From: a virus
Virus record (IMG/VR): IMGVR_UViG_3300027791_000074
Location: 1-33,635 of that record
Reading direction: 5' to 3' (one strand)
DNA: 33,635 nucleotides
In this document: piece by piece, positions 5,622 to 33,635 of the stretch
How the letters are laid out: each line of letters starts with the position of its first letter
How positions within the stretch are numbered: the stretch's first letter is position 1
Translations under genes and position numbers: made by a program
The notes under the pieces: model-generated
The model's database searches: none
What the model saw: only the letters and a program-made list of their open reading frames with translations
Told to the model about the DNA's origin: nothing

Positions 5622-5783
5622 ATGACTACAAGAGAAAGAATGAAAGCTTGGGAGGATCTTGGCTTACCAAAACCAGACTGGGAAACGTTCAAGAGGATGC
5701 TGCCGTTCTGTAATAATAATTCATTATTAGTTCGGACACTGTGGCTGAAAAAGAATTCAAAAAAAGGTGAACAAAAGCCTTGA
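5622..5783 (+). CDS. Small basic hypothetical protein
   Basis: 53 residues, not recognised. Basic, with MTTRERMKAWEDLGLPKPDW then a WLKKNSKKGEQK tail. The start has the AATAATTATG context typical of downstream operon genes here, so it is probably co-transcribed with the DUF1281-like gene 38 nt upstream. The stop TGA (5781-5783) lies within the -35 TTGACA of the next promoter, which supports the frame being real. Confidence 0.6.
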   Translation: MTTRERMKAWEDLGLPKPDWETFKRMLPFCNNNSLLVRTLWLKKNSKKGEQKP

Positions 5784-5807
5784 CATATGCAAAAAGAGTA
5801 TCATGCT
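5780..5807 (+). promoter_or_regulatory. Promoter whose -35 contains the upstream stop codon
   Basis: TTGACA (5780-5785), a 16-bp spacer and CATGCT (5802-5807). The downstream ATG is at 5845, so a leader of about 31 nt is expected, containing the AACCACA stretch found in several leaders here. Confidence 0.65.
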
Positions 5808-5844
5808 AACGATCTCTTAATACAAACCACATAGAACACACATT

Positions 5845-6147
5845 ATGAACAACGAAACCATGCAACAACTATTCAAGGTATCATCAACCGAGCCACACAC
5901 GATGGAACTTATAGAACGTCCAGAGCTTTTCGGTTGGCAAAAGATTTTCAACTTCGAAAACGGCTATGGTGCTTCAGTAGTCTCACATGATTCTTCGTAT
6001 GGCTTAGAGCTTGCGTTGATGGATGATACTGGACACATAGCTCAACACCCAGACATTACAGATGATGTCGTAGGATTTCTTAATGCCGATAGTGCTAACG
6101 ACTTGCTACAAAAAATTTCAAAACTTGAAGTGTGTTCATGTGTATAG
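5845..6147 (+). CDS. Conserved small phage protein (GYGASVV family)
   Basis: 100 residues. The central NFENGYGASVVSHDSSYG ELAL and C-terminal ITDDVVGFLNADSANDLLQKI match a small protein repeatedly seen in phages and of unknown function. No catalytic motif is visible. It has its own promoter with a short SD-less leader. A strong hairpin begins 2 nt after the stop, and the tmRNA-like RNA follows. Confidence 0.75.
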   Translation: MNNETMQQLFKVSSTEPHTMELIERPELFGWQKIFNFENGYGASVVSHDSSYGLELALMDDTGHIAQHPDITDDVVGFLNADSANDLLQKISKLEVCSCV

Positions 6148-6149
6148 CA

Positions 6150-6181
6150 GTCGTCTCGCCTTGTGGTTAGGGCGGGGCGAC
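6150..6181 (+). other. 11-bp stem-loop between a gene and the tmRNA-like RNA
   Basis: GTCGTCTCGCC (6150-6160) pairs with GGCGGGGCGAC (6171-6181) across 11 bp with two G-U pairs and a 10-nt loop. No T-run follows, so it may act as an attenuator, a 3' end stabiliser or a processing signal for the downstream RNA rather than a terminator. Confidence 0.55.
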
Positions 6182-6208
6182 ATTACACAAATATAGAATA
6201 ATTTATAG

Positions 6209-6277
6209 GGGGGTGTAAGGGTTTCGACTCAAGCTATTAGTTTGAACACGGTGGTTCAACTCCACCCACCTCCACCA
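6209..6277 (+). ncRNA. Minimal tmRNA-like RNA (tRNA-like domain only)
   Basis: A 69-nt element with both ends of a tmRNA and no tag-coding middle. The acceptor stem GGGGGTG/CACCTCC has the G3-U70 pair of alanine tRNAs and tmRNAs. Discriminator A and an encoded CCA follow. The T arm is perfect (GGTGG/CCACC with loop TTCAACT). The D region is GGGTTTCGAC, the tmRNA signature instead of a D arm. In place of the mRNA-like domain and pseudoknots there is one short arm, TCAAG/TTTGA with loop CTATTAG. Read as a tRNA it would be a D-armless tRNA with anticodon AUU. Normal tmRNAs are about 350 nt. A charged, SmpB-binding decoy is a hypothesis. Confidence 0.72.
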
Positions 6278-6308
6278 TAAATTTTATTCTTTTTTTTGAA
6301 AAAAAGTA

Positions 6309-6336
6309 TTGACTTCGCTAAACGACCACTCATAAT
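6309..6336 (+). promoter_or_regulatory. Promoter close to the ATG at 6345
   Basis: TTGACT (6309-6314), a 16-bp spacer and CATAAT (6331-6336), then 8 nt to the ATG at 6345. Confidence 0.7.
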
Positions 6337-6344
6337 GCAGGACA

Positions 6345-6686
6345 ATGAAAACAATACAACTATCACTACACCGCTCCGAAGACGAACCTTTTATCCAGAA
6401 ATGGGAGGTCGCCCGCAAATGCGTTTTCTCTGCTCGACTTAATGCAGAACATATCGACTATCCAAATGCTCCCGCCAAGTTAGCTGAGCTTTTGTTTCAC
6501 GTTACAAATGCGCCAATTGAAATGTTGGATAAGGTGCATGAAAAAATCCTTTTGGCTCTCTGGGAGAACTGTTCTGACAAAAAAACCTTTCACTCAACTA
6601 GCGTGGGCGACGTGATAAAAGTAATTGACAACGACGGAGAAAAGACTACTCTAATGTGTAAATCAGCTGGATGGGAGGAACTATAA
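6345..6686 (+). CDS. Small phage protein with a TSVGDVI motif
   Basis: 113 residues. The C-terminal part FHSTSVGDVIKVIDNDGEK then CKSAGWEEL is a small beta motif widespread in phage proteins and resembling YodL-like sequences. The N-terminus is charged, with a PNAPAKLAELLFHVTNAP helix-rich middle. Function unknown. The gene ends in WEEL, whose codons include GGGAGGA (6673-6679), serving as a Shine-Dalgarno site 6 nt before the next ATG. Confidence 0.7.
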   Translation: MKTIQLSLHRSEDEPFIQKWEVARKCVFSARLNAEHIDYPNAPAKLAELLFHVTNAPIEMLDKVHEKILLALWENCSDKKTFHSTSVGDVIKVIDNDGEKTTLMCKSAGWEEL

Positions 6687-6859
6687 TGACAATCGAAAAA
6701 ATAAATTCATATTGCTACGAACACTACGAAGAAGGTGGCGACATTGTTGTTGAGGCAATGGACGACGAAGAAAAGCTTGGTAGGTTTAAAACCTTGGAGT
6801 CTCTTAAAGAATACATTCAGGTTCAACACGAGCATAGGCTAGAGATTCAATCGTGCTAA
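6686..6859 (+). CDS. Small acidic hypothetical protein
   Basis: 57 residues, not recognised. Acidic N-terminus (YEEGGDIVVEAMDDEEKLG) and a helical, charged C-terminus. Its ATG overlaps the preceding stop as TAATG and is preceded by GGAGGA (6674-6679) at a 6-nt spacing. This is one of the few clear Shine-Dalgarno sites in the window. An in-frame start at 6671 would place the site inside the gene and is less likely. Confidence 0.7.
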   Translation: MTIEKINSYCYEHYEEGGDIVVEAMDDEEKLGRFKTLESLKEYIQVQHEHRLEIQSC

Positions 6860-6865
6860 AAAACC

Positions 6866-6893
6866 TTGACATCTACTTATCGAACACTATAAA
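6866..6893 (+). promoter_or_regulatory. Promoter fused to the ATG at 6901
   Basis: TTGACA (6866-6871), a 16-bp spacer and TATAAA (6888-6893), then 7 nt to the ATG at 6901. The in-frame ATG at 6853 is upstream of the -35 box and is not the start. Confidence 0.7.
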
Positions 6894-6900
6894 CATACTC

Positions 6901-7050
6901 ATGAATACAGAAACAATACCTAGTGACGAACTATACGATCATTCGATCAGTCTAGTAGATAGCTTTAACAAACAAATTAAAGAAGCCTATGAATACGAAA
7001 ACGAATCATACGAAAATCAAATTATATCGTATCGAATGGAAATGGTGTGA
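6901..7050 (+). CDS. Small hypothetical protein overlapping the next gene
   Basis: 49 residues from the ATG abutting the promoter, not recognised. Acidic, with EAYEYENESYENQI near the end. Its last 62 nt overlap the next gene in another frame. Starting from the promoter-linked ATG, translation would reach the internal ATG at 6989 while still in this frame, so the short protein may mainly serve to couple translation of the next one. Confidence 0.5.
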   Translation: MNTETIPSDELYDHSISLVDSFNKQIKEAYEYENESYENQIISYRMEMV

Positions 7051-31141: not shown

Positions 31142-32284
31142 TTAAAGTTCTAAAATATCTACAATAGTAGATGCCAATTCTTTAAACCAGTCAACACTAT
31201 TATTCCTTGTTGTTTCGGCTGATGTTCCAATTCGAATCCCACTAGTTTCGACGAATGATCTAGGGTCATTTGGAATTCCGTTTTTATTTACAGTGATTCC
31301 ATTCTCCTCAAGTAAATCTGCGGCCTCTCTTCCACTATATTTGCTATCTTTTAAATTAATTAGAATAATATGAGAATCTGTCCCTCCAGTTTGAATTGAG
31401 ACGCCTTTCTCAATAAATACTTCACACATAGCTTGTGCATTAACAATCACTTCATCAGCATAAGCCTTAAAGTCTGGTTTCTGTGCTTCAATAAATGCTT
31501 GTGCTTTTGCGGCAATAATATGCATTAATGGACCGCCTTGAGTGCCCGGAAATATAGCACTATTAATTTTACGAGTATATTTTTCATTATTCCAAAGAAT
31601 AATGCCACCTCTTGGACCTCTAAGAGTTTTATGAGTTGTTGAAGTTACAAAGTCTGCATATTGAATGGGAGATGGATACGCTTTTCCTGCAATGAGACCT
31701 GAATAATGAGCCATATCTACTAAGAGGTAAGCGCCCACCTTATCGGCAATCTCTCGGAACCTTCTAAAATCAATCTTTCGTGGATATGCACTAGCACCAG
31801 CTACAATCATCTTAGGCGAGATGTCTAGTGCTTGTTTTTCAATCGCGTCATAATCAAGCCACCCATCTTCATCTACACCATAATGATGTGAATCATAAAT
31901 TTTACCTGAAATATTAACAGATGCTCCGTGAGACAAATGACCTCCACTTGCCAAATCCATTCCAAGGATTCGATCTCCAATTTTAAGAAATGCCAAATAG
32001 ATAGCCGTGTTTGCATTCGCCCCGCAGTGAGGCTGAACGTTTGCAAAATTACATTGATAAAGACTCTTTAGTTCTTCAATCGCTAAAGATTCGATTTCAT
32101 CGGCATGATCACAACCATTATAATATCTTTTGTTAGGATATCCTTCGGCATATTTATTGGTAAAACAGCTTCCTGCTAACGCCATTACCGCTTCGCTGGC
32201 AAAGTTTTCACTGGCAATAAGCTCAATAGTATTTGATTGTCTTTCTTTTTCTCTATCAAGAATTGATTGTATTTGTTTGTCCAT
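31142..32284 (-). CDS. glyA: Serine hydroxymethyltransferase
   Basis: 380 residues, slightly shorter than bacterial GlyA (about 415). Transfers the hydroxymethyl group of serine to tetrahydrofolate, giving glycine and 5,10-methylene-THF. PLP sites: LIASENF (22-28), the NPHCGANAN-like QPHCGAN (84-90), LVDMAHYSGL (188-197, D190 and H193), and TSTTHKTLRGPRGG with Lys219 as the PLP lysine. The C-terminal TGGTDSHIILINLK and EETSGIRIGT-like VETSGIRIGTSA are conserved. In phages it can feed dTMP or hydroxymethyl-pyrimidine synthesis. Own consensus promoter. Confidence 0.95.
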   Translation of the reverse strand: MDKQIQSILDREKERQSNTIELIASENFASEAVMALAGSCFTNKYAEGYPNKRYYNGCDHADEIESLAIEELKSLYQCNFANVQPHCGANANTAIYLAFLKIGDRILGMDLASGGHLSHGASVNISGKIYDSHHYGVDEDGWLDYDAIEKQALDISPKMIVAGASAYPRKIDFRRFREIADKVGAYLLVDMAHYSGLIAGKAYPSPIQYADFVTSTTHKTLRGPRGGIILWNNEKYTRKINSAIFPGTQGGPLMHIIAAKAQAFIEAQKPDFKAYADEVIVNAQAMCEVFIEKGVSIQTGGTDSHIILINLKDSKYSGREAADLLEENGITVNKNGIPNDPRSFVETSGIRIGTSAETTRNNSVDWFKELASTIVDILEL

Positions 32285-32302: not shown

Positions 32303-32330
32303 ATTATATATTTTTAATAGAGATTGTCAA
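32303..32330 (-). promoter_or_regulatory. Consensus promoter of glyA, -35 contains the upstream stop codon
   Basis: On the - strand, TTGACA (32330-32325), a 16-bp spacer and TATAAT (32308-32303), both perfect. 18 nt to the ATG at 32284. The stop TGA of the upstream dehydrogenase (32329-32327) lies in the -35 box. Confidence 0.85.
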
Positions 32331-33166
32331 TCAATCACTGCTCGGCCTTTGTCCGATTTCCAATCTTGTTCAGGTCTATCAATGGTTTCATTTCTTGAAA
32401 TAACAGCATCGAGTATTGGTGTATTAACACCGTTTGTTTTACCGTAAGCTGCGAGGGCATGGGTGTCCTTTGGAAAACACGTTCCACCGAACCCTCGCTT
32501 CCCATCAGGTCCTGGTACCAGTGTGTGACCATCGCCAATCCTTTCATCTTGAGTAGCGATGGATCGAATAGTCTCATAGTTCAGGCCTACCTCTGTGCAT
32601 ATAGATTCTAATTCGTTAAAGAAACTAACCTTCACACTAAGGAAAACGTTCTTTAAATATTTAATCATCTCTGCTTCGCCTGGAGTTGTGCGGATCACTT
32701 TTTTATTTATCACTGAACCATTTCCATATCCATGAGCAATAGTAAACATTTTCTTTACCTTTTTATATAACTCATCATCGTTTGTACCAAGAATCCATTG
32801 TGAGCAATTCCTAAAATCTGCTTCCCAATTCTTTTCTGTTAGAAACTCTGGCATAAAATTAACGCAAAGATTATCTGCAGTGCCTGCTGGCACAGTTGAT
32901 CGAAGAACTATATGTTTATCCTTATCGATCTTTTGTATTTCTTCACACACCGAACGAACTATGTTGAGATTTGCACTTCCATCACTATTCATAGGTGTAG
33001 GCACAGCCACAAAGATGATTTCTGATTCCTTAACAAATGTAAAAATATCAAGCGTCTTAGGTTCTCTCTTGTCTTTATCTATGTCCCATACCAATACATC
33101 TATAGATGGGCGTAGTAATGTCATTGCATGACCGACGAAGCCGTTTCCAACAACGCCTATTTTCAT
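32327..33166 (-). CDS. UDP-sugar dehydrogenase-like protein (short form)
   Basis: 279 residues. Rossmann dinucleotide site GNGFVG (7-12), AVPTPMN (54-60), RSTVPAG (89-95), and the catalytic GFGGTCFPKD (225-234, C230) of UDP-glucose/GDP-mannose dehydrogenases. The protein stops shortly after the central domain, so the usual C-terminal nucleotide-sugar domain (family length about 390-450) is missing. It may work with another protein or use a different substrate. The ATG at 33166 is preferred to the in-frame one at 33193, since it has GAGGAA upstream and lies 1 nt from the preceding gene's stop. Confidence 0.8.
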   Translation of the reverse strand: MKIGVVGNGFVGHAMTLLRPSIDVLVWDIDKDKREPKTLDIFTFVKESEIIFVAVPTPMNSDGSANLNIVRSVCEEIQKIDKDKHIVLRSTVPAGTADNLCVNFMPEFLTEKNWEADFRNCSQWILGTNDDELYKKVKKMFTIAHGYGNGSVINKKVIRTTPGEAEMIKYLKNVFLSVKVSFFNELESICTEVGLNYETIRSIATQDERIGDGHTLVPGPDGKRGFGGTCFPKDTHALAAYGKTNGVNTPILDAVISRNETIDRPEQDWKSDKGRAVID

Positions 33167-33167
33167 T

Positions 33168-33635
33168 TTATTGTCTTCCTCGTAATTTAGCATAGTTATA
33201 TGATATGTAGTCTTTTAAATTGTGTTTAGCAAGCCAGCCTAACGCTTTGGTTTTATCGGTAACAACTTCACCCGTCATTCTGTTGCCATTTCTTTCAGGT
33301 AACATTTCGATGTCAGTGCCAAACATTTCTGCGACTTCTAAAATGCTATAAGGTTTATCACACCCAATGCCATAGCCATCACCTTGACCGTGTTCTCCAA
33401 TAATTATGAGAGCGTCTACTATATCATCGATGTATGTGAAATTTCTTTGTTGGGTTCCAGGTGATACTACTTTTAGTTTTTCGCCTTTGCGGATTTTTTC
33501 TAAAAACAGCGCGATTAACGTAGCGTATTTACCTTCTTTAATTTCCCTACCTCCATAAACATTATAGAAATACGTTATTGCGTAGTTGATATCATACCAC
33601 TTACCATAGTTCATAACAAGCTGTGTGTTTTGAGC
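33168..33635 (-). CDS. NAD-dependent epimerase/dehydratase, C-terminal part
   Basis: 155 codons, open to the window edge, so the N-terminus is outside. The frame continues upstream of the ATG at 33614 as AQNTQLV, consistent with the segment after the YxxxK of SDR sugar epimerases. YFYNVYGGREI is the NVYG motif, and KLKVVSPGTQQRNFTYIDDIVDAL is the typical substrate-binding region. It would act on a nucleotide sugar upstream of the dehydrogenase 1 nt away. Substrate unknown. Confidence 0.8.
   Translation of the reverse strand, partial: AQNTQLVMNYGKWYDINYAITYFYNVYGGREIKEGKYATLIALFLEKIRKGEKLKVVSPGTQQRNFTYIDDIVDALIIIGEHGQGDGYGIGCDKPYSILEVAEMFGTDIEMLPERNGNRMTGEVVTDKTKALGWLAKHNLKDYISYNYAKLRGRQ

What the first reader, a model, noticed from the sequence alone, without database searches (positions are those of the whole stretch)
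6209..6277. A 69-nt tmRNA reduced to its tRNA-like domain
Seen directly: the tmRNA 5' signature (GGGGGTG, then GGGTTTCGAC), the 3' half with a perfect T arm, the alanine-type G3-U70 pair, discriminator A and CCA, all within 69 nt. The mRNA-like domain and pseudoknots are replaced by one 5-bp arm with loop CTATTAG, which even has U33 and A37 as an anticodon loop would. Established: full tmRNAs are about 350 nt, and AlaRS recognises G3-U70. Inference: the RNA could be alanylated and bind SmpB or EF-Tu without offering a tag template. It would then block host trans-translation or end stalled chains with Ala. Alternatively it could be a D-armless tRNA that reads AAU as Ala.
Basis: partly seen in the sequence, partly recalled or inferred. 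Interest (0 to 1): 0.92.

Follow-up and report, generated by a model that had tools for sequence, protein, structure and literature searches.

The report
Phage tmRNA without its message part
This phage carries a 69-letter RNA gene that keeps only the tRNA-like head of tmRNA, the RNA bacteria use to rescue and tag stalled ribosomes; it belongs to a widespread, strictly conserved family of phage RNAs known so far from one published phage example, and probably interferes with the host's ribosome-rescue tagging.

Summary
Window 6209-6277(+) scores 49.4 bits against Rfam tmRNA (cut-off 47, E 8.7e-17) with the message domain missing. It is not an assembly accident: a syntenic relative (L040) has the same RNA between the same two genes. 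Pattern scans of IMG/VR found about 209 distinct RNAs of this design (60-90 nt), against 6 MAG contigs in 257 Gb of prokaryote genomes. In 72 aligned long forms the single arm covaries strongly (95% of cells paired; covariation 1.04 versus 0.22 shuffled). Where the acceptor stem was left free, every fully paired sequence keeps G3-U70 while the next pair changes freely: strong evidence for recognition by alanyl-tRNA synthetase. Isolated Streptomyces phages (BRock, GiJojo, LuckySocke, pSt2308) carry it unannotated. Carriers lack SmpB. The arm's loop varies, so the 'anticodon' idea fails. One phage example, DS6A, was already published as 'TLD only', and such RNA inhibits tmRNA in E. coli (PMC4131195, PMC11915505). 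The window is therefore a new member of a known kind; the family's size, structural classes and conservation appear new. Best explanation: an alanylatable decoy that competes with host tmRNA for SmpB and stalled ribosomes. Function itself is untested.

The parts
6209..6277 (+). TLD-only (message-less) tmRNA gene, 69 nt including encoded CCA
   Evidence: RF00023 49.4 bits, E 8.7e-17; R1 model 55.6 bits
6209..6215 (+). 5' strand of acceptor stem, G3 of the G3-U70 pair at 6211
   Evidence: 7/7 pairs with 6267-6273
6216..6228 (+). linker and tmRNA-type D-loop, GG.UUCGAC
   Evidence: sequence; conserved motif in A1
6229..6245 (+). P2-like arm: 7 bp UCAAGCU/AGUUUGA with AUU loop; replaces the mRNA-like domain and pseudoknots
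   Evidence: MFE fold; twin L040 keeps the pairing with changed bases and an AUUU loop
6250..6266 (+). T arm, 5 bp, loop UUCAACU
6267..6277 (+). 3' strand of acceptor stem (U70 at 6271), discriminator A and CCA
6150..6181 (+). 14-bp hairpin just upstream of the RNA gene, kept in L040; role unknown (possible processing or termination element)
   Evidence: z = -7.0 in window, -6.4 in L040
6290..6297 (+). run of eight T downstream of the RNA; possible transcript end
   Evidence: sequence only; no terminator called
6309..6336 (+). promoter-like site of the next gene (TTGACT-16-CATAAT)
   Evidence: consensus match only

Best explanation
It is a phage-encoded tmRNA stripped to its tRNA-like domain. 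Host enzymes would mature it, host alanyl-tRNA synthetase would charge it through G3-U70, EF-Tu and host SmpB would bind it, and it would compete with host tmRNA for SmpB and for stalled ribosomes. Having no tag template, it would lower host tagging and degradation of unfinished chains during infection. Shown here: the RNA's design, its conservation, the invariance of G3-U70, phage association, and absence of SmpB in carriers. Taken from the literature: a similar phage DS6A RNA inhibits tmRNA in E. coli. Inferred: charging, SmpB binding, ribosome entry and benefit to the phage.
For: Rfam tmRNA match. 108 IMG/VR stretches matched by one strict pattern versus 6 in 257 Gb of prokaryote genomes. 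About 209 distinct sequences over three patterns. P2 covariation score 1.04 versus 0.22 shuffled and at most 0.18 slid. With the acceptor unconstrained, 139 of 139 sequences with a fully paired acceptor have G3-U70 while pair 4 takes five types (that set overlaps the first scan, which forced G3-U70); among those found only by the unconstrained scan 71 of 72. Streptomyces phages found by BLAST changed pair 4 to U-A but kept G3-U70. No SmpB in 49 carriers or in the window. Literature: PMC4131195 and PMC11915505 report the TLD-only RNA of phage DS6A and inhibition of tmRNA by such RNA.
Against: No expression, charging or binding data. With the D-loop left free, only a minority keep exact GG.UUCGAC, although GG is retained, so tmRNA-like SmpB binding may not hold for all members. 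Streptomyces phages Riptide and Tomas carry a full tmRNA as well as a diverged short form, which does not suit a simple blocker. The gene is patchy: 3 of 50 distant relatives by PhoH/terminase have it.
Confidence: 0.55

Rival explanations
1. Tagless ribosome rescue: the charged RNA with SmpB enters stalled ribosomes, accepts the chain onto Ala, and the ribosome is then recycled (by drop-off, ArfB or peptidyl-tRNA hydrolase) without a tag. It would help the phage free ribosomes rather than block rescue.
For: Message-less mitochondrial tmRNAs co-occur with imported SmpB, and PMC11915505 infers that they still help with incomplete mRNAs. Same anatomy here; G3-U70 kept.
Against: The only cited experiment on a phage form reports inhibition of tmRNA. 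No sequence feature here separates the two readings.
Confidence: 0.25
2. A charged RNA used outside tmRNA's pathway: an alanine donor, or bait for host enzymes that attack or modify tRNA acceptor ends, without need of SmpB.
For: D-loop motif varies in part of the family while G3-U70, T arm and GG stay (that pattern itself demanded G3-U70 and the T-arm core). Several members sit in phage tRNA arrays.
Against: Most members found keep the tmRNA-specific GG.UUCGAC and the GGAC junction; but two of the three pattern scans demanded the former.
Confidence: 0.13
3. An unusual D-armless tRNA that reads AAU as alanine.
For: In the window alone, a 5-bp fold gives a 7-nt loop CTATTAG with U33 and A37.
Against: Best fold is 7 bp with a triloop; twin has one base more in the loop; relatives have GCAA, GCGA, UUCG loops or a nested hairpin.
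Confidence: 0.02
4. A dead remnant of a tmRNA gene or an integration-site copy.
For: Prophages can integrate into ssrA and carry ssrA fragments (PMC9004378).
Against: Both ends are present, all stems pair, and compensatory changes run across the family.
Confidence: 0.03

Closest known systems
TLD-only tmRNA of mycobacteriophage DS6A (tmRNA Website 11587; Mao et al. 2009 as cited in PMC4131195 and PMC11915505)
   Same: Phage-encoded, little more than the tRNA-like domain, no tag reading frame.
   Different: I could not obtain the DS6A sequence, so arm structure was not compared. DS6A was a single case; here there are about 209 sequences in two structural classes.
Message-less mitochondrial tmRNAs (jakobids, oomycetes) and ~65-bp plastid forms of Mallomonadaceae
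   Same: tRNA-like domain without a coding part.
   Different: Organelle genes, with nucleus-encoded SmpB in the mitochondrial case; here phage genes without SmpB.
Full phage tmRNAs (e.g. Streptomyces phages Tomas and Riptide, marine phage Melnitz)
   Same: Same tRNA-like halves.
   Different: Those are full-size (about 270 nt in Tomas and Riptide) or two-piece with a message part; here only a short hairpin arm joins the two halves.
tRNA-Ala
   Same: G3-U70, A73, 7-bp acceptor, T arm.
   Different: No D stem, no anticodon arm, tmRNA-type D-loop.

Membership tests
tmRNA (Rfam RF00023) | Match above the curated score, both ends of the model | tested here: met
   49.4 bits versus 47, positions 1-374
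tmRNA (Rfam RF00023) | Alanine identity G3-U70 and A73 | tested here: met
   present in window; 139/139 in family with acceptor free
tmRNA (Rfam RF00023) | tmRNA D-loop GG.UUCGAC and no D stem | tested here: met
   6219-6228; varies in other members
tmRNA (Rfam RF00023) | mRNA-like domain with tag reading frame and pseudoknots | tested here: not met
   only a 17-nt hairpin, so it is not a full tmRNA
TLD-only (message-less) tmRNA | Both halves of the tRNA-like domain joined by a short arm, no coding part | tested here: met
TLD-only (message-less) tmRNA | Inhibits or modifies trans-translation | not testable with these tools
   published for a similar RNA only (PMC11915505)
TLD-only (message-less) tmRNA | Sequence relation to DS6A's RNA | not tested
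   DS6A record not held
tRNA | Conserved 7-nt anticodon loop | tested here: not met
   loop length and sequence vary

The most novel reading that the evidence does not exclude
Message-less tmRNAs are a common, virus-specific RNA family by which many unrelated phages switch off or redirect trans-translation, and the conserved inner element of the long form (AAAG bulge over a CCGC/GCGG hairpin) is a dedicated binding site not found in full tmRNA.
Probability: 0.4. Interest if true: 0.85.

Novelty: new member of a known kind. Interest (0 to 1): 0.68.

Why it matters
Message-less phage tmRNA was, as far as the papers found here show, a single curiosity (DS6A). The data show a large, strongly selected family that standard gene finders overlook, including in isolated phages of laboratory Streptomyces strains. 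That makes a concrete question testable: whether phages commonly interfere with bacterial ribosome rescue, and why.

Tried and rejected
BLASTN of the region found nothing and of the 69-mer gave mainly T-arm matches to tRNAs in isolate phages. Several BLAST hits turned out to be permuted two-piece tmRNAs (SM1, QDWS595, BUCTxx99, RpAliso) and were set aside. ARAGORN gave tRNA calls over two members and a tmRNA call over a third (L031, L101, L082); these looked spurious. The DS6A record was sought under two accessions recalled from memory and is not held. Near-identical relatives of the window by terminase (L301-L304, L306) turned out not to contain the region, so they say nothing on presence or absence. 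Anticodon reading and pseudogene were considered and rejected (see rivals). The 127-nt extra stretch after the RNA in L040 matches no RNA family and folds no better than shuffles. The host of the window phage could not be named: the terminase matches isolates only at about 20-26% identity.

Full report
Observation. The 69 nt at 6209-6277(+) contain both halves of the tmRNA tRNA-like domain. Rfam RF00023 matches at 49.4 bits (cut-off 47, E 8.7e-17) from model position 1 to 374 with the middle absent. ARAGORN calls only the tRNA-Lys and tRNA-Glu at 2511-2669. The acceptor pairs 7/7 with G3-U70, and A73 and CCA are encoded.

Not an artefact. The window is an IMG/VR virus record. In the L040 stretch (of a 141.7-kb contig) eleven window genes have relatives at 67-95% amino acid identity, and the same RNA lies between the orthologues of ORF 5845-6147 and ORF 6345-6686. 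The upstream 14-bp hairpin is kept too.

A family. A strict pattern of the two halves separated by 16-46 nt matched 108 stretches of IMG/VR, but only 6 MAG contigs among 257 Gb of prokaryote genomes; two of those six carry terminase or head-protein genes. There are two classes. Short forms (about 60-69 nt, like the window) have one hairpin with loops such as GCAA, GCGA, UUCG, CUAG, AUU. Long forms (about 74-90 nt) have an outer helix of about 8-9 bp, an asymmetric internal loop (commonly AAAG opposite A or AG) and an inner hairpin, often CCGC/GCGG.

Structure is selected. On 72 long forms, six of seven P2 pairs change on both sides, 95% of cells pair (54% in shuffles), and the covariation score is 1.04 against 0.22 shuffled and at most 0.18 slid. 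The T stem pairs 5/5 in 89 of 89 sequences, its three outer pairs unconstrained by the search.

Alanine identity is selected. The second pattern fixed only C71, C72 and A73 of the acceptor. All 139 sequences with a fully paired acceptor have G3-U70, while pair 4 occurs as GC, CG, UA, AU and GU. That set includes sequences from the first scan, which forced G3-U70; among the 72 found only by the second scan, 71 have G3-U70 and the one exception is among the two whose acceptor pairs only 4 of 7. Streptomyces phages reached by BLAST show the same: pair 4 is U-A, G3-U70 stays. AlaRS recognition of G3-U70 is established knowledge; charging of this RNA is inference.

D-loop. With the D-loop left free, GG is retained, but the exact GG.UUCGAC motif is kept in only a minority of the 57 sequences. 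The earlier patterns demanded this motif, so its invariance in A1 is built in by the search.

Isolated phages. Streptomyces phages pSt2308, GiJojo, LuckySocke, BRock and, more diverged, Alone3, Riptide and Tomas carry the RNA, not annotated as such, in their tRNA arrays after tRNA-Val(tac). Riptide and Tomas also have a full tmRNA, and their short forms have lost the UUCGAC motif. None of the 41 IMG/VR carriers searched shows a full-length RF00023 match (permuted forms not searched, records mostly fragments).

Partners and spread. No SmpB in 49 carriers or the window, so host SmpB would be needed. Phages sharing terminase, PhoH or sigma-like genes with the window at roughly 25-37% identity also carry short forms, but a search of 50 relatives picked by protein alone found it in 3: it is an accessory gene.

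Known and new. PMC4131195 lists mycobacteriophage DS6A as 'TLD only' and says a similar molecule strongly inhibits tmRNA, perhaps by titrating SmpB; PMC11915505 repeats this and adds ~65-bp plastid forms and message-less mitochondrial tmRNAs. The kind is therefore known. My searches of open papers found no report of a broad phage family; subscription papers and preprints were largely not covered.

Mechanism. I favour an alanylatable competitor of host tmRNA (0.55), then tagless rescue (0.25), then a role outside the tmRNA route (0.13). The anatomy cannot separate the first two.

Noticed in passing
window 6150-6181: 14-bp hairpin (z = -7) 27 nt upstream of the RNA gene, kept in L040 with a pair-preserving change; its loop region resembles a tRNA D arm.
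   Followed up: partly
L117, L124 (Streptomyces phages Riptide, Tomas): One genome carries a full tmRNA and a diverged short form with G3-U70 kept but the UUCGAC motif lost.
   Followed up: partly
long-form members, e.g. L028, L116, L126: Conserved inner element AAAG / CCGC-NN-GCGG / A inside the arm; some members (e.g. L023) resemble the start of P2 in full tmRNA (AAACCGAAGTG), a comparison made from memory only.
   Followed up: partly
L040 4872-4998: About 120 nt extra between the RNA and the next promoter, absent from the window; no RNA family match.
   Followed up: partly
window 31142-32284 and 32327-33193: Serine hydroxymethyltransferase and UDP-glucose/GDP-mannose dehydrogenase-like genes on the phage.
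   Followed up: no
window 5780-6915: Several small genes are preceded by sigma-70-like promoter sequences (TTGACA/TTGACT), suggesting many short transcription units.
   Followed up: no
L118, L120, L121, L122: Permuted two-piece tmRNA genes in isolate phages SM1, QDWS595, BUCTxx99 and RpAliso, with no feature listed under the match in the records.
   Followed up: partly
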